The position numbers were made by a program, and so were the translations under genes. A stretch of 40,354 nucleotides of DNA from Bacteroidales bacterium (GTDB lineage Bacteria > Bacteroidota > Bacteroidia > Bacteroidales > UBA932), in NCBI GenBank assembly GCA_017554335.1, contig JAFZIO010000028.1, positions 1 through 40,354 on the forward strand. Direction: 5' to 3'. Under the pieces are notes generated by a model. That model was not told where the DNA came from, did not search any database, and saw only the letters and a program-made list of their open reading frames with translations. Shown here in pieces: positions 14,611 through 39,675 of the stretch (position 1 is its first letter; every line of letters begins with the position of its first letter).

Positions 14611-14695
14611 GCCATTTCAATGCAAAGCCGATAAAGATTCGCTGAAAAAATTGGCGGTTTTACTGAGACAATTGAAGAATGGCCGGGAAATTGCT

Positions 14696-14703
14696 TACCT
14701 TAG
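14696..14703 (+). promoter_or_regulatory. Weak -7 box of the polymerase operon
   Basis: TACCTTAG differs by one base from TAnnTTTG. ATTG at 14671-14674 is 21 bp upstream as a weak -33. The start codon at 14721 follows by 17 nt. The poor match suggests dependence on an activator such as the divergent LytTR system, which is inference. Confidence 0.35.
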
Positions 14704-14720
14704 GAGTAAAGAATCGCACT

Positions 14721-16493
14721 ATGAAACGTGTACTATTATTAATCGCTTTATCGGGCTTCGCCTTTGCCTCCTGCCAGGAGGATATTATTGCGACGACAGA
14801 CGAACCCGTAGAGAATCCCAGTACGAACGATGACGACGGTGACCCCGAGGAGGGCCAGGGCAACTGGGACGATATCAACCTCACTGATTTTTCCCGAACC
14901 ATAAGCATTAAATGGGACGGCAGCAAGGCATCCGTAGAAGGCGACGAGAACGGCATAGTGAGCGTCAGCGGCGCCGACGTGACCGTGGACAACCGCAACT
15001 ACGACGAATTCGTGCGTTACGAGCTCTCCGGCAGCTCCTCCGACGGCAGCCTGAAAGTCTATAGCCTCCGGCGTCTTGCGCTGGTGCTCAACAGCCTGGA
15101 CCTCACCAACGCCGGCGGTGCCGCAATCAACGTGCAGACCCACAAACGCACCTTCGTGGTGCTTAACGGCAGCAGCAAGCTGGCCGACGGTTCCGTGAAC
15201 GCATCCGGCGACTACCCCGAAGAGACGAGCACCGAAGACATGAAGGCCGCCTTCTTCAGCGAAGCGCAGCTGGTCTTTAGCGGCGGCGGCTCCCTTACCG
15301 TGAACGCCAAAGGCAAGGCAGGCATCACTTCCGACGACTACCTCCGCTTCATGGGCACCCAGACCGTCACTTCCACGTCGGCCAACGGGCACGCCCTCCG
15401 AGGCAAGGACGGCATCATCGTGGATGACGGTTTCCTTTCCGCAAGCGCCTCTGCCGCAGGCAAGAAGGGCATGAGCTCCGACGGCTCCGTAACAATTAAC
15501 GGCGGCGACATCAGGATAACAGTCAGCGGCGGAGTGCTCAAGGAGGCGGTAACGTCCGGCAGCTCCTATACTTACGAATACACCGCATCCGCCGGCATCA
15601 AGGCAGACTCTACCTTCGTCATGACGGGCGGCGTGCTTGACATCACCAACACCGGCGACGGCGGCAAGGGCATCAGCGGCGACATGGGCGCCCGCTTCGA
15701 AGGGGGCAACGTGAGAGTGGGAGTATCTGGCGGCAACTACGGTTCCTCCAGCAGCGGAGGCGGCCCCGGAGGACGTCCGGGCGGCGGCAACAGCAGCAGC
15801 TCCAATAGCGACGACAGCTCCAAATCGGCCAAGGGCATCAAATTCGACGGCGACATTGTCATAAGCGGCGGCAGCATAAGCGTCACCAGCAAAAACCACG
15901 AGGCCATCGAGGCTAAGGGCAAACTTACCGTCACCGGCGGCGAACTGTATGCCTACTCCACATCCGACGACGCCATCAATTCGGCGGGCGACATGACCCT
16001 CAGCGGCGGCTACGTTTGCGGCTGGTCCACAGGGAACGACGGCCTGGACGCCAACGGCAACCTCTATATCGACGGCGCCTGCGTGTACGCCGTAAGCACC
16101 AAGGGCAGCCCGGAAGTGGCGGTGGACGCCAACACCGAGCAGCAGAAGAAGCTCTACCTCAAGAGCGGCACGCTGGTGGCCATAGGCGGCATCGAGAGCG
16201 GCTCCTCCATCACCGGAACGGCCTACAGCACCTCCTCCTGGGGCAAGGGCAAATGGCTCGCGGTGTACGACAAGAGCGGGAACGCGGTGTTCGGATTCAA
16301 AACGCCCGAATCCAGCGGCAACTCCACGATGGTGGTGTACTGCAACGGCGCCACTGCCACCCTGAAGTCCGACGTGAGCACATCCGGCGGAGAGATTATC
16401 TGGGGCGGCTTCGGGTATGAACCCGGCAGTTTCTCCGGAGGCAGCAACATCAGCCTCTCCACTTATTCCGGAAACAGCGGCGGACGCAGATAG
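14721..16493 (+). CDS. Cthe_2159-type beta-helix lipoprotein
   Basis: A 590-aa lipoprotein (MKRVLLLIALSGFAFASC, Cys18), a paralogue of the protein at 9316 without its fimbrillin-like front half. The beta-helix repeats are nearly superimposable ('GKAGITSDDYLRF', 'ALRGKDGI', 'KGMSSDGSV', 'KGSPEVAVDANTEQQ'). A Gly/Ser/Asn-rich low-complexity stretch (about 340-370) splits the helix. The family founder, Cthe_2159 of Clostridium thermocellum, binds cellulose and acidic sugars; members are often found beside VTC and DUF4956 genes, as here. It heads the operon running to 19224. It probably binds or anchors a surface polymer, which is inferred from context. Confidence 0.82.
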   Translation: MKRVLLLIALSGFAFASCQEDIIATTDEPVENPSTNDDDGDPEEGQGNWDDINLTDFSRTISIKWDGSKASVEGDENGIVSVSGADVTVDNRNYDEFVRYELSGSSSDGSLKVYSLRRLALVLNSLDLTNAGGAAINVQTHKRTFVVLNGSSKLADGSVNASGDYPEETSTEDMKAAFFSEAQLVFSGGGSLTVNAKGKAGITSDDYLRFMGTQTVTSTSANGHALRGKDGIIVDDGFLSASASAAGKKGMSSDGSVTINGGDIRITVSGGVLKEAVTSGSSYTYEYTASAGIKADSTFVMTGGVLDITNTGDGGKGISGDMGARFEGGNVRVGVSGGNYGSSSSGGGPGGRPGGGNSSSSNSDDSSKSAKGIKFDGDIVISGGSISVTSKNHEAIEAKGKLTVTGGELYAYSTSDDAINSAGDMTLSGGYVCGWSTGNDGLDANGNLYIDGACVYAVSTKGSPEVAVDANTEQQKKLYLKSGTLVAIGGIESGSSITGTAYSTSSWGKGKWLAVYDKSGNAVFGFKTPESSGNSTMVVYCNGATATLKSDVSTSGGEIIWGGFGYEPGSFSGGSNISLSTYSGNSGGRR

Positions 16494-16504
16494 ATCTGTT
16501 GATT

Positions 16505-16912
16505 ATGAGACGATTACTTACTATATTTACTGCTCTGTTGCTCCTGGCACCGGCACTGTGCGCCCAGGAACAGCAGAAGATAAACAAGAAGAACCTTATC
16601 ATAAAGGAGTGGAACACCGACGCCAAAACCAACGCCCGCGTCCTGGACCACCAGACCACCTATAGTCCTGAGGGAAAGAAGATTGAGGAGATTGAATACG
16701 GGCAGAGCAAGCAGAAATGGCGCAAGCGCTACGAGCACGGAGCCGACGGCAAGGTGACCCGCGAGCTGCTGTACGACGAGCACAACAAGCTTGTAAGCAT
16801 CAAGAAGTTCGAATACAACGAATTCGGACGCAAGAAGAAGCAATATACTTACGACGCCAAAGGCAAACTAAGGACAATAAAGGTGTTTGAATATCTGACG
16901 GAAGATGCTTGA
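16505..16912 (+). CDS. Small secreted protein with YD/MORN-like repeats
   Basis: A 135-aa product with a signal peptide cut near 'LCAQ' (residue about 19). The mature part has about three repeats of the form Y-x-(D/H)-x-x-x-K-x-(x)-R/K ('YEHGADGKVTRELLY', 'YDEHNKLVSIKKFEY', 'YDAKGKLRTIKVFEY'), like wide-range YD or MORN-type hairpins seen in secreted Bacteroidetes proteins. Basic and hydrophilic otherwise. The ATG at 16505 opens the signal peptide. The 3' end overlaps the VTC gene by 8 nt, which ties it to that operon. Role unknown. Confidence 0.7.
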   Translation: MRRLLTIFTALLLLAPALCAQEQQKINKKNLIIKEWNTDAKTNARVLDHQTTYSPEGKKIEEIEYGQSKQKWRKRYEHGADGKVTRELLYDEHNKLVSIKKFEYNEFGRKKKQYTYDAKGKLRTIKVFEYLTEDA

Positions 16913-17678
16913 TTCAAGGCTCATAGATGCTTTCCCGCCCGTTTCCCTGGAGGAGATGGACGGAGTGAAGCTTATGAACCGTATCGACACAAAATACCTT
17001 ACCGACGAGCAGACGCTGGCGGGAATTCTGGAGGATGCTTTTAACAGCGGCTACCGGGCCTTGGTAACGGACGGCAGCAAGATGGCCTCCTACGACACCC
17101 TGTACTTCGACACCCCGGAACTGCGCATGTTCATGGACCACCACAACAGGCGGCTTGTACGCCAGAAGGTCCGCACACGTGTGTACGTGGGTTCAGGGAC
17201 CACTTTCCTGGAAATAAAGCGCAAAAACAACCACGGGCGCACCAAGAAGAAAAGGGTGGAAATCCCATTGGCCGAGTTCAAGGATTTCAGCGCAGACGTG
17301 ACTGCCTGCGAGTATCTGGAGGCAAAGTCCTGGTTCACCGCTGCCGAGCTCAGCCCTTCGCTGGAAACCATATTCAGGCGCATTACTCTGGTGAACCCCG
17401 CAATGACGGAACGCATCACGATAGACAGCAGTCTGGGATTCAACAACTTCCGCACAGGGCTGGACGCCTCCCTGCGCAACGGGGTTGTGATAGAGCTCAA
17501 GCAGGACGGAAGGGCGGAAAGCACAATGAAACGCATACTGCTGGACCACAGGGTTAAGCCAATACGCGTAAGCAAATACTGCGTAGGCATTACACTTACC
17601 TCGCCCGGGCTAAAGACCAACCGATTCAAACCCAAGATACGCAAGATAGAAAAACAAATAAACAATAAACTGATATGA
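16905..17678 (+). CDS. VTC-domain (polyphosphate polymerase-like) protein
   Basis: A 257-aa cytosolic tunnel-fold enzyme candidate of the VTC4/CYTH-like family. Basic and acidic tunnel residues are in place: 'RIDTKY' (26-31), 'KVRTRVY' with Arg90 and Arg92, 'EIKRK' (103-107), 'ERITID' near 169-174, 'ELKQDG' with Glu197 and Lys199, and 'SKYCVG' at 223-228. In yeast the domain polymerises ATP gamma-phosphate into polyphosphate; the bacterial homologues' product is less certain. It lacks its own membrane anchor and overlaps the DUF4956 membrane gene by 4 nt, suggesting that the two form one complex. Confidence 0.85.
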   Translation: MLDSRLIDAFPPVSLEEMDGVKLMNRIDTKYLTDEQTLAGILEDAFNSGYRALVTDGSKMASYDTLYFDTPELRMFMDHHNRRLVRQKVRTRVYVGSGTTFLEIKRKNNHGRTKKKRVEIPLAEFKDFSADVTACEYLEAKSWFTAAELSPSLETIFRRITLVNPAMTERITIDSSLGFNNFRTGLDASLRNGVVIELKQDGRAESTMKRILLDHRVKPIRVSKYCVGITLTSPGLKTNRFKPKIRKIEKQINNKLI

Positions 17679-18412
17679 TAGACATCGACGAAGAAGTCAT
17701 TGACGTACAGACCATTATCGACGCCATGATGACCACATCGCAGAGCCTTGCCGAGCTCGCCATCCGCTTCTTCCTGAACCTGGCGGTATGCTGGATACTG
17801 GTACAGTTCTTCTACTACCGCAAGAGCCGCAGGCGCGACTACTATTTCACCTTCATGGTGTTCTCTTCCGCCATGCTGCTGCTCCTTTATATGATGGGCA
17901 ATGCCGAGGTGGGCGTGGGCCTTACCCTGGGTCTGTTCGCCATCTTCGGAGTAATACGCTACAGGACGGAGACTGTGCCCATCAGGGAGATGACCTATCT
18001 GTTCATCATTATCGCAGTTGCCGCGGTAAACGGCCTCTCCCCTCTCTATAAAATAGTAGGAGCGTCCGGCGACTATCCTCATTACGAATTGTCGCTCGGT
18101 TCGCTGGGTGTGCTGGTCATATCCAACCTGCTGGTAGTCATACTGGTGTGGGTTCTGGAGAGCGGACGCGCGCTCAAGCACACCGCCACCCGCCTGGTGC
18201 TCTACGACCGCATCGAGCTTATAGTTCCGGAAAGGCGTGCCGAACTCATTGCGGACCTCGAAAAGCGCATCGGCGGCAAGGTGGACAACGTGGAGATAGG
18301 CCACGTGGACTTCCTGCGCGACGCTGCATACATCAAAGTGTATTACACCTTGGGCAAGGGCGAGAGCTCGTCGATAGGCGAACTTACCAAGGCAAAGAAT
18401 TACGTGGAATAG
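17675..18412 (+). CDS. DUF4956 inner-membrane protein
   Basis: A 245-aa protein with about five hydrophobic segments (roughly 27-48, 57-74, 77-94, 106-122, 143-162), the signature 'VIRYRTETVPIREMTYLF' between them, and a soluble C-terminal part (165-245) ending in an alpha/beta pattern with 'IGHVDFLRDAAYIKVYY'. DUF4956 genes are typically next to VTC genes. The overlap here (ATGA) supports co-translation and a membrane-bound polymerase/transport pair. No enzyme motif was recognised in it. Confidence 0.85.
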   Translation: MIDIDEEVIDVQTIIDAMMTTSQSLAELAIRFFLNLAVCWILVQFFYYRKSRRRDYYFTFMVFSSAMLLLLYMMGNAEVGVGLTLGLFAIFGVIRYRTETVPIREMTYLFIIIAVAAVNGLSPLYKIVGASGDYPHYELSLGSLGVLVISNLLVVILVWVLESGRALKHTATRLVLYDRIELIVPERRAELIADLEKRIGGKVDNVEIGHVDFLRDAAYIKVYYTLGKGESSSIGELTKAKNYVE

Positions 18413-27504: not shown

Positions 27505-27520
27505 CGGTTTGTCGCCCCGC

Positions 27521-27703
27521 TCCTGACGCATTTTGGCCGTATTTCTGTCAGATTGGAGGAATTATCACCGTTCCTGACAGGTTTCGCTCGTTTTTCTGTC
27601 AGATTGAAGGAATTTTCACCGTTCCTGACAGGTTTCGGCCGTTTTTCTGTCAGATTGAAGGAATTTCCACCGTCCCTGACAGGTTTTGGCCGAAAATCTG
27701 TCA
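27521..27703. repeat. 51-bp tandem repeat array with internal hairpins
   Basis: Three full 51-bp units start at 27521, 27572 and 27623, and a partial fourth runs 27674-27703. Units 2-4 carry CTGACAG and CTGTCAG about 16 nt apart as an inverted pair, and in the last unit this widens to a nearly perfect 27-nt palindrome (27677-27703). Because 51 is a multiple of three, reading frames across it stay open on both strands without meaning that they are coded. It lies between convergent genes and may terminate both. Confidence 0.85.
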
Positions 27704-27725: not shown

Positions 27726-27989
27726 TTATTCCGCCCAACCGTTTTCTATAAGCATGGTGATAAAGGCGTTCACCTCGTCAGTTGCTTGTTGCTGATTCAC
27801 GTCGTATTTCGACAGAAGAAGAGCAACAATATCAGAGACGTCTTTGCCATCTTGCAGGGCCTGAAGGATGATGGCTCCCGTCTCGTTGAGGTTGAAAACC
27901 TTCTCAACGGTTTGCGTCTCGAGGTTCTTGGCTACTGCCACAAACATGTCGGCCACCTCCTGGATGGAAAACTCATATTTCAGCTTCAT
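27726..27989 (-). CDS. PqqD-like peptide chaperone
   Basis: An 87-aa PqqD-family protein. It has the family core 'VFNLNETGAIILQALQDG' (about 34-51) followed by 'DIVALLLSKYDV' and a C-terminal helix. Such proteins carry the RiPP recognition element that holds precursor leaders for radical SAM enzymes. Its start at 27989 overlaps the end of the radical SAM gene by 17 nt, so the two are one translational unit. The longer upstream frame consists only of the radical SAM gene's repeat-like tail read in another frame, so ATG 27989 is chosen. Confidence 0.8.
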   Translation of the reverse strand: MKLKYEFSIQEVADMFVAVAKNLETQTVEKVFNLNETGAIILQALQDGKDVSDIVALLLSKYDVNQQQATDEVNAFITMLIENGWAE

Positions 27990-29313
27990 CGTCGTTTTCG
28001 TTATCGTTTTCGTTCTTATTAAGCCAGAGCTCATACTCGTTCTTCATGGCTTCGATGGTGTTGTAGATACGTTCCTTCTGCCGTTCAGGTGTGCAGTACC
28101 AACCGTTATCGCACATCGTCAGACGTACACACTGGGGATAACAGGGACAGGTGGCGCAAGCCTCTATTTCTGCAGGACGCTCCTTAAACTTACGCAGAAT
28201 AGTCTCGTTATGTTCCAGGCTGTCAATATGCCCATAAAACTCGCGGTCGATATAATGCTCACACTTGCCGAGATATCCGGAAGGGCTAATCATCACACTT
28301 TGGTCGTTATCGGCCATGCAGCAATTCAGCTTGATGTCCTTCTGCAGTTTTTGTTTCTGGCCATAGCCATTGGCTGCAATCTGCTGCTCCAACTGCATAC
28401 GCTTTTCATAGAGCAGGGCGCTTTCCTCCTGCGTGCGTTCGCCATAAAGCACGCGCGAATAGACAGAAAGACTCTTGTTGGCTCCAAACCGCTGATGCAA
28501 CAACGCGACCAACTGTGCCATCTCGCCCATATTGTGATGATCTACATTCAGGCGTATGGGCACCCTGATTCCTTCAGCCGTCAGTAGTTCGATATTCCTT
28601 AATACCCGTTCAAAGGCATTGACGTTCTTGTAGACGTAGGCCTTCACCTGGTTATAAGTATGCCCCGTGCCGTCAAGGGTAATCTGCACCCGCTTTAGCT
28701 GCCACAGTTCCTTAGCTCTGTGCACCATGTCGGCATCAAACAAATAGCCATTGGATATCATCGAAGAGCGGAAAGGCACATCATGCTCCTTTAGGTCGGT
28801 GCATATCCGGTCAATCACTTTGGCGTTCACCAACGGCTCTCCGCCAAACCAACGGATACTGACCTTCTCTTCCCCTCGATGTTCCCTGATATATAGGCTC
28901 ACCTTGTCGGCCGTATCAGCCGTCATTGTTACGGGCTTCGTCCCTTTTTCGTAGCAATAGAAACAGCGGGCATTGCATCCCGTAGTAGGTAAAATAGTAT
29001 AGCTTTTAATGTTCTTGGCAGGAGGCAGGAAGAGAGCTGCCATTTGTCGAATTTGCGCACAAAGCTTGAGGTCATCGTGTTCCTCAGGCACCAGGAACCA
29101 ATTGTCGACCAACTCCTGCTGCGACGTCATGTTGGCGGCTTCCTCGTGGCAAAGCAATACCATACAACAGGTCAGCGTATGATAAAGCAATACCCCGTCT
29201 TCGACAGGGCATTGGATTACATAGGTCATCAGCCGATAGGTCTGACCTTCTTTGCGCTTTTGTTTGCCGACTACTTGGTCAACAAGTGATGATGCAGGAG
29301 AGATGACCCGCAT
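27973..29313 (-). CDS. Radical SAM/SPASM peptide-modifying enzyme
   Basis: A 446-aa iron-sulfur enzyme. The SAM cluster motif CNARCFYC gives Cys113, Cys117 and Cys120; 'WFGGEPL' is the GGE motif. A C-terminal SPASM region has Cys in 'LNCCMADN', 'GKCEHYI' and 'CATCPCYPQCVRLTMC' for auxiliary clusters. The N-terminal 90 residues match the RiPP-recognition-like front of Bacteroidetes peptide maturases. The tail is a run of Asn/Asp/Glu. ATG 29313 is 22 nt after the stop of the small ORF at 29461-29336, and PqqD overlaps its end. Together these form a precursor-enzyme-chaperone set, most likely for thioether or other carbon-centred crosslinks in the peptide. Upstream in-frame Met codons (29418, 29367) are alternatives. 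Confidence 0.88.
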   Translation of the reverse strand: MRVISPASSLVDQVVGKQKRKEGQTYRLMTYVIQCPVEDGVLLYHTLTCCMVLLCHEEAANMTSQQELVDNWFLVPEEHDDLKLCAQIRQMAALFLPPAKNIKSYTILPTTGCNARCFYCYEKGTKPVTMTADTADKVSLYIREHRGEEKVSIRWFGGEPLVNAKVIDRICTDLKEHDVPFRSSMISNGYLFDADMVHRAKELWQLKRVQITLDGTGHTYNQVKAYVYKNVNAFERVLRNIELLTAEGIRVPIRLNVDHHNMGEMAQLVALLHQRFGANKSLSVYSRVLYGERTQEESALLYEKRMQLEQQIAANGYGQKQKLQKDIKLNCCMADNDQSVMISPSGYLGKCEHYIDREFYGHIDSLEHNETILRKFKERPAEIEACATCPCYPQCVRLTMCDNGWYCTPERQKERIYNTIEAMKNEYELWLNKNENDNENDDEAEI

Positions 29314-29335
29314 AGGTAAACCAAAATTTCGGCAT

Positions 29336-29461
29336 TTATTCGTCACTGACAGGGTTTTGACAAGCATCATAAATAGTACATGACGCCTGCAAGATACTTG
29401 CTTTTGACCGCAACTCAATAACCAGCATCGATGGCTCTTCGAACTTCTTCTTTTCTTCCAT
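29336..29461 (-). CDS. Candidate RiPP precursor peptide
   Basis: A 41-aa ORF directly upstream of the radical SAM gene. It starts MEEKKKFEEP, a charged leader, and continues to 'SILQAS' at 22-27. The putative core from residue 28 has two Cys five residues apart (CTIYDAC) and an acidic end PVSDE. Leader positions Phe7, Pro10, Glu16-Leu17, Leu24 and Ala26-Ser27 match the peptide at 451 without a gap. The Ala-Ser/Cys boundary would be a natural cleavage point, but no protease or transporter is seen next to it. The product is unknown. It falls below common gene-length cut-offs, so automated calls may miss it. Confidence 0.7.
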   Translation of the reverse strand: MEEKKKFEEPSMLVIELRSKASILQASCTIYDACQNPVSDE

Positions 29462-29584
29462 GATTGAATTTGAAAATTGGTACACTATTTATAAACTAAC
29501 GTAACTAACTTACTAAATTACATAGTATTTTGCAATGCTGCAAATTAATTCGTATAAAAATGAGTGCGTGTCTGAATCTTTTGT

Positions 29585-29600: not shown

Positions 29601-30599
29601 ATGCATGAAAATGAAGATATTATTACCATTTCGCTGATTATTCCGGTCTATAATGTTTCCAGATATATAGAGCGGTGTCTGAAATCTGTCATCAAGCAGA
29701 CATACAACATTTTTGAGTGCATTCTGGTAGACGATGCTTCGCCCGATGACAGTATTGCCATTTGTGAGCGGATAATTGCGGCTTATGACGGTCCCATCAC
29801 CTTCCGCATCCTTCATCATGAGCATAACCGAGGTCTCTCTGCTGCTCGCAACACGGGTATAGATGCAGCCACAGGTGACTACATCCTGTTTATCGACAGT
29901 GACGACATCATTAGCAACGATTGTGTAGAAAAGTTGATGGCACCGGTGCTGAATAATAAGAATATTGAAATGGTGATTGGAGAGCATCTGCACTTTTCTA
30001 ACAACGGGCTGTTGGATCAGCATAAAAGCAACTGGCGTTGTAAGGAGGACTTATCATCACATGATGCAGTTCGCGATTTGTATTTAACTATCGATCGCCG
30101 CTTGCCACCCGCAGCATGGAACAAGCTTACCAGCAGGGATTTTATTAATCGGCATCAGCTGCGGTTTAAAGAAGGAATGATTTGGGAAGATACTTTGTGG
30201 ACGTTTTTCGAAATGAAGTATCTCAGCCATGTTTATACCATTCCAGATGTAACGTACTTCTACTACAACCATCATGATTCCATCTGCAAAGGCACCCCTC
30301 AAAATGTCCTTAGCACTCACGGATGTCTGGTTTGCGACATCATCTCGACAAATTTTACTCCAGGAGAAGAGAATCGAGAGGCAGCAAAACATTTGGAGCG
30401 TTTTTTATATAACTACTTTGGAATTCCGCAAAGCAAGCGGTTTCAGGACACCGCCCGTCGCTTCGCCAAAGCCCTTCCTTTCCGGAAATACCCTCACGAA
30501 AGAATCCTTCTTTGGGCAGCTATGTGGCTCCCGCATAATGAAACGGGACGGAATATCTTCAAATGGCTTCAGAAGAAGAATAAGCGGCCGCACGCTTAA
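29601..30599 (+). CDS. Family 2 glycosyltransferase
   Basis: A 332-aa GT-A enzyme that transfers a sugar from a nucleotide donor. 'ISLIIPVYNVSRYIERCLKS' opens the domain; 'LVDDASPDDS' and 'NRGLSAARNTGID' follow, and 'LFIDSDD' is the DxD metal site near 107-113. The C-terminal half with 'WEDTLWTFFEMK' fits cytosolic polysaccharide GTs. It has no membrane anchor. The gene is divergent from the RiPP set, separated by 140 bp of AT-rich DNA, and its codon use is less GC-rich than the core genes. A link to the peptide set is possible but not shown. Confidence 0.88.
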   Translation: MHENEDIITISLIIPVYNVSRYIERCLKSVIKQTYNIFECILVDDASPDDSIAICERIIAAYDGPITFRILHHEHNRGLSAARNTGIDAATGDYILFIDSDDIISNDCVEKLMAPVLNNKNIEMVIGEHLHFSNNGLLDQHKSNWRCKEDLSSHDAVRDLYLTIDRRLPPAAWNKLTSRDFINRHQLRFKEGMIWEDTLWTFFEMKYLSHVYTIPDVTYFYYNHHDSICKGTPQNVLSTHGCLVCDIISTNFTPGEENREAAKHLERFLYNYFGIPQSKRFQDTARRFAKALPFRKYPHERILLWAAMWLPHNETGRNIFKWLQKKNKRPHA

Positions 30600-38687: not shown

Positions 38688-38935
38688 TGGAAAAAGAGAA
38701 TCTAATAGACAAACTCCACGAAGCGGACATGCTCTACTTTGTACTCGGTTCCCTCATAAGTGCCGAATCCCTGGTAGATATTGATGCCTGTCACAAAGCA
38801 TTGAATTGCCTTGAGGATCTTAAACGGGATTTCGAGACATCTAAACTGATGGACGATCCCAAACTGAGGTCCTATTTGGACAATGCAGAGAGCATTATCA
38901 AGCGAGATATGGAACACTTTAAAGAAACCCATTAA
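38684..38935 (+). CDS. Unknown 83-aa helical protein
   Basis: A helix-rich acidic protein (starts MMEKENLIDKL) with no recognised family. Both ends overlap neighbours, ATGA with the phosphoesterase and TAATG with the Thg1-like gene, so it is made with them. An adaptor or small subunit role is plausible but unproven. ATG 38687 is an equally possible start. Confidence 0.65.
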   Translation: MMEKENLIDKLHEADMLYFVLGSLISAESLVDIDACHKALNCLEDLKRDFETSKLMDDPKLRSYLDNAESIIKRDMEHFKETH

Positions 38936-39675
38936 TGACCTTCAACTGCCTTGACACCAAAATGCGCGTCTACGAGCAATCGCTCGACCAAATCATCCCG
39001 CCTGAGAATTACCTGCTGGCCCGCATTGACGGGCGCAGTTTCACACGCCTCACAAAAGAAATCTGCCAGTTCGAAGCCCCTTTTGACGAGCGTTTCAACC
39101 GGATGATGGTGGAAACCGTCAAGGCCCTGGTGGCCGATACCGGGATGGAAATCACCTATGGATACACCCAGAGCGACGAGATTTCCCTCCTCTTCGCCAA
39201 AGACGCCCAGGTATTCGGCCGCAAAGTCCGAAAACTCAACTCCATCCTTGCAGGCACCGCCAGTGCCCGCTTCTCCCTACTCCTGGGCCAGCCCGCCGTC
39301 TTCGACTGCCGCATCATCCCCCTCCCCAACCAGGAGCTGGTTGCCGATTACTTCCGCTGGCGCATGGAAGACGCCCACCGCAACTGCCTCAAATCCTGGT
39401 GCTACTGGACGCTCCGCAAGGAAGGTCTAAGCGCATCAAAAGCCAGCAAAGAGCTCGAAGGCAAGAGCATTGCTTTCAAGAACGAGCTCCTCTTCCAACG
39501 TGGCATCAACTTCAATGACCTACCCGTCTGGCAACGCCGAGGTGTTGGTGTCTACTGGCATGAATATCAGAAGATTGGGCACAATCCCATCACCGGGGAA
39601 GACATACCCACCACCCGCCGGGAAGTCTATGCCGATTATGATTTGCCGAAAGGGTTTGTACCAATCATTCAATAG
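38935..39675 (+). CDS. Thg1-like 3'-5' tRNA polymerase
   Basis: A 246-aa Thg1-like protein (TLP). 'LLARIDGRSFTRLTKE' near 27-42 with Asp32 and 'YGYTQSDEISLLF' near 75-87 with Asp81 give the two-metal palm site. Eukaryotic Thg1 has a HINNLYN motif; here 'HRNCLKS' occupies that place, as expected for bacterial TLPs that repair truncated tRNA 5' ends rather than add G-1 to tRNA(His). It is translationally coupled to the helical protein and phosphoesterase upstream, which suggests RNA end processing before 3'-5' repair. An RNA ligase or kinase is not present in the window. Confidence 0.9.
   Translation: MTFNCLDTKMRVYEQSLDQIIPPENYLLARIDGRSFTRLTKEICQFEAPFDERFNRMMVETVKALVADTGMEITYGYTQSDEISLLFAKDAQVFGRKVRKLNSILAGTASARFSLLLGQPAVFDCRIIPLPNQELVADYFRWRMEDAHRNCLKSWCYWTLRKEGLSASKASKELEGKSIAFKNELLFQRGINFNDLPVWQRRGVGVYWHEYQKIGHNPITGEDIPTTRREVYADYDLPKGFVPIIQ

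What the first reader, a model, noticed from the sequence alone, without database searches (positions are those of the whole stretch)
27726..29461. Candidate RiPP locus with a previously uncalled 41-aa precursor
A 41-aa ORF (29461-29336) with a charged leader, an Ala-Ser boundary and a two-Cys tail lies 22 nt before a radical SAM/SPASM gene, whose end overlaps a PqqD-like gene. Precursor, enzyme and recognition protein are the minimal set for a radical SAM-modified peptide. SPASM plus PqqD-like pairs are well known in RiPP maturation; this peptide's Cys spacing (CTIYDAC) does not match the six-Cys SCIFF or PQQ classes that I know.
Basis: partly seen in the sequence, partly recalled or inferred. 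Interest (0 to 1): 0.82.

Follow-up and report, generated by a model that had tools for sequence, protein, structure and literature searches.

The report
Bacteroidales cassette for modifying cysteine peptides
A tiny gene in a gut or rumen bacterium encodes a short cysteine-containing peptide that is very probably reshaped by the radical enzyme and carrier protein encoded beside it, and its front half is shared with many other small genes that may use a common export pathway.

Summary
A 41-aa ORF (29461-29336) lies 22 nt before a 446-aa radical SAM/SPASM gene that overlaps a PqqD gene. Relatives confirm the precursor: 10 similar ORFs lie upstream of homologous enzymes, with a conserved leader (K-K-x-[FY]-E-x-P-x-M) under purifying selection and a hypervariable core with Cys. 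The leader carries the YxxP-type motif of lasso and PqqD-type recognition proteins; the window's PqqD is closest, among solved structures, to the lasso protein TfuB1. The enzyme model resembles CteB (a thioether-forming peptide maturase) best and over the greatest length, tied in score with anSME.

(1) A divergent family-2 glycosyltransferase is adjacent in all four members found of this enzyme clade. (2) The leader belongs to a wider set of small ORFs, in this genus Cys-free and next to exported-protein genes in 26 of 26 examined. (3) That set co-occurs with an HprK-like / S26-like / PqqD / ABC-exporter module (8 of 8 genomes versus 3 of 50), present elsewhere in this genome, which could cleave and export the peptide.

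Best explanation: a RiPP cassette, probably installing Cys thioethers, that uses a shared export pathway. Chemistry and function are untested. New variant of a known kind.

The parts
29336..29461 (-). 41-aa precursor peptide gene
   Evidence: Homologues upstream of rSAM in L006, L007, L008, L009, L010, L012, L013, L014, L015, L058; leader dN<dS
29381..29461 (-). Leader, residues 1-27, ending ILQAS
   Evidence: K4, K5, E8, P10, M12 invariant in 11 of 11 aligned precursors, L058 given from its inner part on
29426..29443 (-). FEEPSM, the [FY]xxP-type recognition motif of the leader
   Evidence: Y and P are the only invariant residues in 16 non-rSAM relatives; YxxP as RRE motif: PMC12710340 passages
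29339..29380 (-). Predicted core CTIYDACQNPVSDE (boundary inferred)
   Evidence: First core Cys invariant, remainder hypervariable
27973..29313 (-). Radical SAM/SPASM maturase, 446 aa, with an N-terminal domain that may be a recognition domain
27726..27989 (-). PqqD-family RiPP recognition element, 87 aa
   Evidence: PF05402 5.2e-16; best solved relative TfuB1 1.7e-7
29601..30599 (+). Family-2 glycosyltransferase, divergent partner gene (ORF could start at 29535; two relatives start near 29601)
   Evidence: PF00535 1.9e-37; adjacent in WIN, L006, L014, L058
29513..29544 (-). Candidate Bacteroidales promoter TTTG-N20-TAATTTAG (1 mismatch) of the precursor operon
   Evidence: without mismatch in L006, L014, L058
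27517..27692 (.). 51-bp tandem repeat x3.5 between PqqD and ybaK; downstream flank of the cassette, dispersed in the genome

Best explanation
A RiPP cassette. The 41-aa peptide is the precursor. Its FEEP leader motif is bound by the adjacent PqqD protein, and perhaps also by the N-terminal domain of the maturase, which presents the short C-terminal core (CTIYDACQNPVSDE) to the radical SAM/SPASM enzyme. That enzyme most likely makes Cys-to-side-chain thioether crosslinks (minus 2 Da each). The divergent glycosyltransferase may add a sugar to the peptide or to something that acts with it. The leader is then probably cut near AS|C and the product exported by the HprK-like / S26-like protease / PqqD / ABC-transporter module encoded elsewhere in the genome (contig C51), since no protease or transporter gene was seen in the cassette. 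Shown: gene content, conservation, leader selection, predicted enzyme fold, co-occurrence of leader family and module. Inferred: binding, crosslink type, glycosylation target, cleavage site, export, biological role.
For: Conserved precursor-rSAM-PqqD order and leader; purifying selection on the leader; promoter pattern 4 of 4; rSAM+PqqD in one ORF in L017; PqqD closest to TfuB1, a lasso leader-binding protein (role recalled), and YxxP listed as a recognition motif, with W/Y/LxxP/L/I for PqqD- and FusE-type RREs. Nearest named maturase families act on Cys-rich peptides (TIGR04463, Clo7bot, CefB, PapB); best fold match CteB, tied with anSME. GT2 homologue (E<=1e-50) in 2 of 400 genus genomes, both beside the cassette, and also in L006 and L014, while the six other window neighbours tested are absent from L006, L014 and L058. 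HprK-like gene in 8 of 8 genomes with A3 (YxxP small ORF) hits versus 3 of 50 without, Fisher 8.6e-8; YxxP ORF, lipoprotein and the whole module on one strand in L235, and YxxP ORF next to HprK in L231; several rSAM loci of a second architecture carry their own HprK/S26/PqqD2 genes. Module with S26, PqqD2 and ABC in the genomes of G000, L006 and L014. S26-like Ser, His-Arg and Gly-Asp-Gly-Asn invariant in 10 of 10.
Against: No product is known. rSAM scores are far below every NCBIfam cut-off among the 25 models shown of 54 (best 122.7 bits versus 525). Cys-acceptor spacing gives no clear rule; the recalled PapB CX3D spacing is not enriched (12 of 66, as expected). 27 of 43 rSAM rows lack a strict-motif ORF within 500 nt; some have precursors elsewhere or of looser form (L011, L025, L028, L035), but L018-L023 show none. 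PqqD was not found in 15 of 41 rSAM loci (some contigs end nearby). The leader occurs mostly without any rSAM. In G390 only the HprK-like gene of the module was found (genome 65% complete). 'HprK-like' rests on weak matches, 16-28 bits, below every cut-off, and no Pfam hit for the C51 copy. The GT2 linkage is one clade, so possibly one event.
Confidence: 0.72

Rival explanations
1. The small ORF is the precursor, but the enzyme does other chemistry: epimerisation, C-C or ether crosslinks, or cutting a small redox cofactor out of the peptide as in PQQ or mycofactocin, with the product staying inside the cell.
For: Radical SAM/SPASM enzymes do all of these (recalled); no acceptor rule emerges from the cores; anSME is tied with CteB in fold score and TigE is near; no export gene seen in the cassette.
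Against: A core Cys is present in 11 of 11 near-relative precursors; the best family matches are Cys-peptide maturases; cores are hypervariable, unlike a cofactor source.
Confidence: 0.2
2. The small ORF is another member of the wide YxxP small-ORF family with a non-RiPP role (for example a regulatory or processed peptide), and the neighbouring rSAM acts on something else.
For: 26 of 26 non-rSAM leader hits examined have Cys-free tails and precede an exported-protein gene, with no rSAM.
Against: In rSAM loci the same leader carries Cys cores, sits just upstream of the enzyme, and comes with a distinct PqqD subtype.
Confidence: 0.07
3. The glycosyltransferase is a bystander that travels with the cassette, or protects the producer by altering its own surface, and does not modify the peptide.
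For: Best NCBIfam and PDB matches are polysaccharide-type GT2 enzymes; SunS peptide glycosyltransferase scores only 39.1 versus cut-off 350; one monophyletic clade.
Against: Adjacency kept at 58-65% protein identity while the other neighbours tested differ; close homologues rare otherwise.
Confidence: 0.45

Closest known systems
Ranthipeptide (SCIFF) maturase CteB and its class
   Same: Radical SAM/SPASM fold; best solved match by sequence (2.1e-6) and longest good match by fold; Cys-containing substrate
   Different: 14% identity over 373 aligned residues; the precursor is not the six-Cys SCIFF peptide; a separate PqqD protein and a GT2 are present
TIGR04463, Clo7bot and CefB Cys-rich peptide maturases
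   Same: Top NCBIfam matches; Cys-rich targets annotated beside two plasmid relatives
   Different: 122.7, 120.6 and 108.4 bits against cut-offs 525, 600 and 600; different partners
Discrete lasso-peptide recognition proteins (TfuB1/FusE type) with YxxP leaders
   Same: PqqD closest in the PDB to TfuB1; [FY]xxP leader motif
   Different: No lasso cyclase or transglutaminase-type B2 protease among the window proteins scanned
Published Bacteroidales RiPP clusters with GG leaders and PCAT exporters (PMC10352776)
   Same: rSAM-centred Bacteroidales loci; that paper also reports rSAM areas with a peptide S-glycosyltransferase domain and two of nine clusters with glycosyltransferases, so rSAM plus glycosyltransferase is not new as such
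   Different: No GG boundary here; YxxP leader, and an S26/ABC module elsewhere in the genome. I did not search this genome for PCATs
HPr kinase / PqqD / nucleotidyltransferase genes of rumen and Paenibacillus lasso clusters (PMC7533575 passages)
   Same: HprK-like, PqqD and, in some, nucleotidyltransferase genes together
   Different: The Bacteroidales module has an S26-like protease and an ABC exporter and goes with YxxP small ORFs; no lasso cyclase noticed in the stretches of the module read

Membership tests
RiPP biosynthetic locus (general) | Ribosomal precursor with conserved leader and variable core next to a modifying enzyme | tested here: met
RiPP biosynthetic locus (general) | Modified mature peptide | not testable with these tools
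   Needs mass spectrometry
Radical SAM/SPASM peptide maturase | CX3CX2C plus SPASM cysteines | tested here: met
   C113, C117, C120 and C332, C351, C386, C389, C395, C401, C407 invariant in 38 of 38; no Pfam SPASM hit for the window protein
SCIFF / TIGR03974 ranthipeptide | Six-Cys SCIFF precursor | tested here: not met
   Two Cys in the window peptide; TIGR03974 not among the best 25 of 54 NCBIfam matches listed
Ranthipeptide chemistry | Thioether from Cys to a non-alpha carbon | not testable with these tools
   Inferred from the enzyme relatives only
PapB type | CX3D/E acceptor spacing (recalled) | tested here: inconclusive
   CTIYD fits in the window, but D/E at C+4 is 12 of 66 over 20 cores, equal to shuffles; PapB model 82.1 versus cut-off 340
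TIGR04463 maturase | Score over the curated cut-off of 525 bits | tested here: not met
   122.7 bits
Clo7bot maturase (TIGR04334) | Score over the curated cut-off of 600 bits | tested here: not met
   120.6 bits
Lasso peptide locus | YxxP leader bound by a PqqD-type B1 protein | tested here: inconclusive
   Motif present, PqqD nearest TfuB1; binding not tested
Lasso peptide locus | Asn-synthetase-like cyclase and B2 protease in the cluster | tested here: not met
   None among the window proteins scanned, which are the main ORFs and not every ORF
PQQ biosynthesis | PqqD equivalog (TIGR03859) | tested here: not met
   34.3 bits versus cut-off 46
Glycocin (SunS-type) | SunS S-glycosyltransferase equivalog (TIGR04195) | tested here: not met
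   39.1 bits versus cut-off 350

The most novel reading that the evidence does not exclude
The window cassette is a radical SAM plus glycosyltransferase plug-in to a general, apparently undescribed Bacteroidales peptide pathway. Many small genes with a YxxP leader, in this genus usually just upstream of surface-lipoprotein genes, would encode RiPP-like precursors that are recognised by PqqD, handled by an HprK-like kinase and, where present, a nucleotidyltransferase, cut by a soluble S26-type protease and exported by an ABC transporter. The Cys-core branch gained its own PqqD, maturase and, in one clade, a glycosyltransferase, giving glycosylated crosslinked peptides.
Probability: 0.4. Interest if true: 0.85.

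Novelty: new variant of a known kind. Interest (0 to 1): 0.62.

Why it matters
The Bacteroidales RiPP survey that I could read in part reports GG leaders and peptidase-containing ABC transporters for most of its nine clusters (PMC10352776). This cassette and its relatives suggest a second logic: a YxxP leader, PqqD subtypes and a separate protease/exporter module. The same leader marks small ORFs in 23 of 400 genus genomes at E<=0.001 and 90 of 400 at E<=0.05 (about 0.4 and 20 expected by chance), which gives a handle on many small genes next to surface lipoproteins and a directly testable set of enzymes, including one in a Prevotella record not marked as a MAG (L006).

Tried and rejected
Chance ORF: rejected by position, leader conservation and dN<dS. 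A PapB-like CX3D rule for the crosslink: not supported; D/E at C+3 (21 of 70, p 0.009), Cys four or five residues apart, and S/T at C+1 (20 of 70, p 0.004) are mild excesses among 44 uncorrected tests. A looser motif without the boundary and Cys was too permissive (22 of 43 against 0.29 expected per locus). Empty-site comparison: the neighbouring UDG-like gene was found in 16 of 40 relatives, but the fetched stretches reach only about 1.5 kb, two of them held another window neighbour, and no empty site was shown. Mobile carriers: best plasmid relative 29% identity (E limit 1e-20) and best full-length viral-contig relatives 35-37%, none close. Low GC of the cassette (0.46 against 0.54 for the window) is within the range of the window, 36 of 375 windows being lower. 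Genus-level presence of PqqD (36 of 41) did not separate genomes with and without YxxP ORFs: 19 of 20 versus 16 of 20; the order-level test with the HprK-like gene did. Of the three HprK-positive genomes counted as lacking YxxP ORFs, G078 turned out to have one beside the module; G270 and G452 were not examined. Of the fold libraries only the second look (pdb_via) was run. Papers: nine searches listed no paper whose title or abstract start describes this cassette or the YxxP/HprK/S26 module; the library holds only open-licence PMC texts and I read few of them.

Full report
What is there. On the minus strand, a 41-aa ORF (29461-29336) is followed after 22 nt by a 446-aa radical SAM gene (29313-27973), whose end overlaps an 87-aa PqqD gene (27989-27726). 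Pfam gives Radical_SAM 1.1e-17, PqqD 5.2e-16, and for the divergent upstream gene Glycos_transf_2 1.9e-37; the small ORF has no family. The window lies in a 2.35 Mb, 75-contig genome estimated 88% complete.

Relatives. The rSAM protein has homologues at E<=1e-60 in 12 of 400 genomes of the genus, the window's own included, and 39 loci were fetched from named bacterial genomes, mostly rumen and gut Prevotellaceae, Bacteroidales and Clostridia. The nearest (57-70% identity) are mostly in Prevotellaceae records and in two genomes of the same genus, so the tree mixes lineages. PqqD was found in 25 of 41 rSAM loci, plus a fragment in L015; several contigs end close by. In L017 the rSAM and PqqD are one 530-aa ORF.

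The precursor. Ten similar ORFs lie upstream of near relatives: 11-21 nt before the rSAM gene in L006, L014 and L058, and about 150-275 nt in the others. In the alignment of 11 (L058 given from its inner part on), K4, K5, E8, P10, M12 and the first core Cys are invariant; the rest of the core differs in length, Cys number and spacing. More distant loci have small ORFs with the same plan, for example L017, L024, L026, L027, L028 and L031. L011 and L025 keep theirs further upstream, before a PqqD gene; that of G057 is cut by the contig end. Leader codons are under purifying selection. A strict motif is present near 16 of 43 rSAM rows against 0.016 expected each. The clade L018-L023 shows no such ORF, nor does L016, which counts against a universal rule.

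The neighbouring glycosyltransferase. A GT2 gene starts opposite the precursor. It is adjacent in all four members found of the window's rSAM clade (WIN, L006, L014, and G390 = L058), which is one side of a branch with support 96/98. GT2 proteins are 58-65% identical. Searching with the GT2 itself, 2 of 400 genus genomes match at E<=1e-50 and both carry the cassette (there at most five candidates per genome were scored, so others could be missed). With all candidates scored, 2 of 61 relatives match at E<=1e-40: the window's genome and G063, another family, 42% identity. Six other window neighbours were not found in L006, L014 or L058. Homologues and the promoter position suggest that translation starts at 29601, not 29535. 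Radical SAM plus glycosyltransferase combinations are known in Bacteroidales (PMC10352776).

Second architecture. Other near relatives (L007, L008, L012, L013, G057) have no GT2 seen but an HprK-like gene, mostly an S26/S24-like protease gene, and a second PqqD subtype after the first PqqD. L007 has two HprK-like genes and no S26 hit. The name HprK-like rests on weak matches. The S26-like proteins keep Ser, His-Arg and Gly-Asp-Gly-Asn in 10 of 10, as expected for an active serine protease of the signal-peptidase type (motif reading recalled), and reach Pfam's S24 cut-off in L011, L159 and L235, though not in L008.

A shared pathway. The same kind of module with an ABC transporter sits at contig C51 of this genome (L157). 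Of 30 PqqD loci fetched from the genus, the window's included, 25 have the S26-like gene beside them (my count of its rows). The genomes of L006 and L014 also have HprK-like, S26, PqqD2 and ABC together; in G390 only the HprK-like gene was seen. The window cassette therefore could use this module for cleavage and export; that is inference.

The wider leader family. The precursor profile matches 90 of 400 genus genomes at E<=0.05, where about 20 would match by chance, and 23 of 400 at E<=0.001, rSAM-bearing ones included (my count). I examined 26 matches without an rSAM (25 fetched as loci plus one in the window's own genome): 26 of 26 have [YFW]xxP, 26 of 26 have a Cys-free tail, and 26 of 26 lie within -41 to +28 nt of the first long downstream ATG frame, with a lipobox by pattern in 17; the other nine have hydrophobic N-termini by eye. 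A profile built from 16 of them has only Y and P invariant and matches 8 places in the window's genome, one of them the window precursor; of the other seven, six were read, four of them with an exported-protein gene next, one with none found and one at a contig end. Outside the genus the link to exported-protein genes is looser: of nine ORFs with a next gene looked for, four have a lipoprotein-like gene next.

Co-occurrence. Across the order, 8 of 247 genomes match that profile at E<=0.01, about 2.5 being expected by chance; a YxxP small ORF could be read in each (in G646 the frame runs on). The HprK-like gene occurs in 8 of 8 of these and in 3 of 50 others (Fisher 8.6e-8, or 2.0e-7 for 7 of 7 versus 2 of 47 outside the genus and family). 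The 50 were chosen before the result: three named as same genus or family without a match, the rest by handle number, not all of them named in that call's shortened list. There was no phylogenetic correction. In L235 a YxxP ORF, a lipoprotein gene, HprK-like, S26-like, PqqD, NTP-transferase and ABC genes follow one another on one strand; in L231 a YxxP ORF lies just before the HprK-like gene.

How it most likely works. Leader binding by PqqD through FEEP, presentation to the maturase, Cys-based crosslinking, possible glycosylation, then leader removal and export by the shared module. The first part rests on conserved gene content, motif and fold; the rest is inference.

Comparison with the literature. 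I read passages, and section 12, of PMC10352776, passages of PMC12710340 (YxxP and W/Y/LxxP/L/I recognition), of PMC13289728 (2 ranthipeptide clusters in rumen Bacteroidota) and of PMC7533575 (HPr kinase, PqqD and nucleotidyltransferase in rumen genomes and lasso clusters). For PMC9413430 I saw only the start of the abstract in a listing. None of the nine searches named in Tried and rejected listed a paper on this cassette.

Noticed in passing
L002, L099-L103, L105-L110, L112-L118, L120-L126: Small ORFs with the same YxxP leader but Cys-free tails lie directly upstream of exported or lipoprotein genes: 26 of 26 examined.
   Followed up: yes
L157 3126-6365 (G000:C51); also L131, L141, L143, L159, L235, L237: HprK-like / S26-like / PqqD / ABC exporter module, with an NTP_transf_5 gene in some; co-occurs with the YxxP small ORFs.
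   Followed up: partly
G000:C62 3074-10240: Four YxxP profile matches within about 7 kb of the window's own genome; three of them read, each before an exported-protein gene.
   Followed up: partly
window 27517-27692: 51-bp tandem repeat between PqqD and ybaK; similar DNA at 17 places of the genome, the window included.
   Followed up: partly
L009 3332-6308, L015 3505-5404, L059 4918-7540: Tandem duplicate rSAM genes behind one visible precursor, that of L059 cut by the contig end.
   Followed up: no
L011 919-2004 and L025 465-1544: A second, distantly related radical SAM gene (SPASM hit in L011) before the precursor, PqqD and S26-like genes.
   Followed up: no
window 38935-39675: Thg1-type tRNA-His guanylyltransferase in a bacterial genome (PF04446 6.3e-32).
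   Followed up: no
window 14679-18412: Cthe_2159, VTC-domain and DUF4956 genes close together.
   Followed up: no
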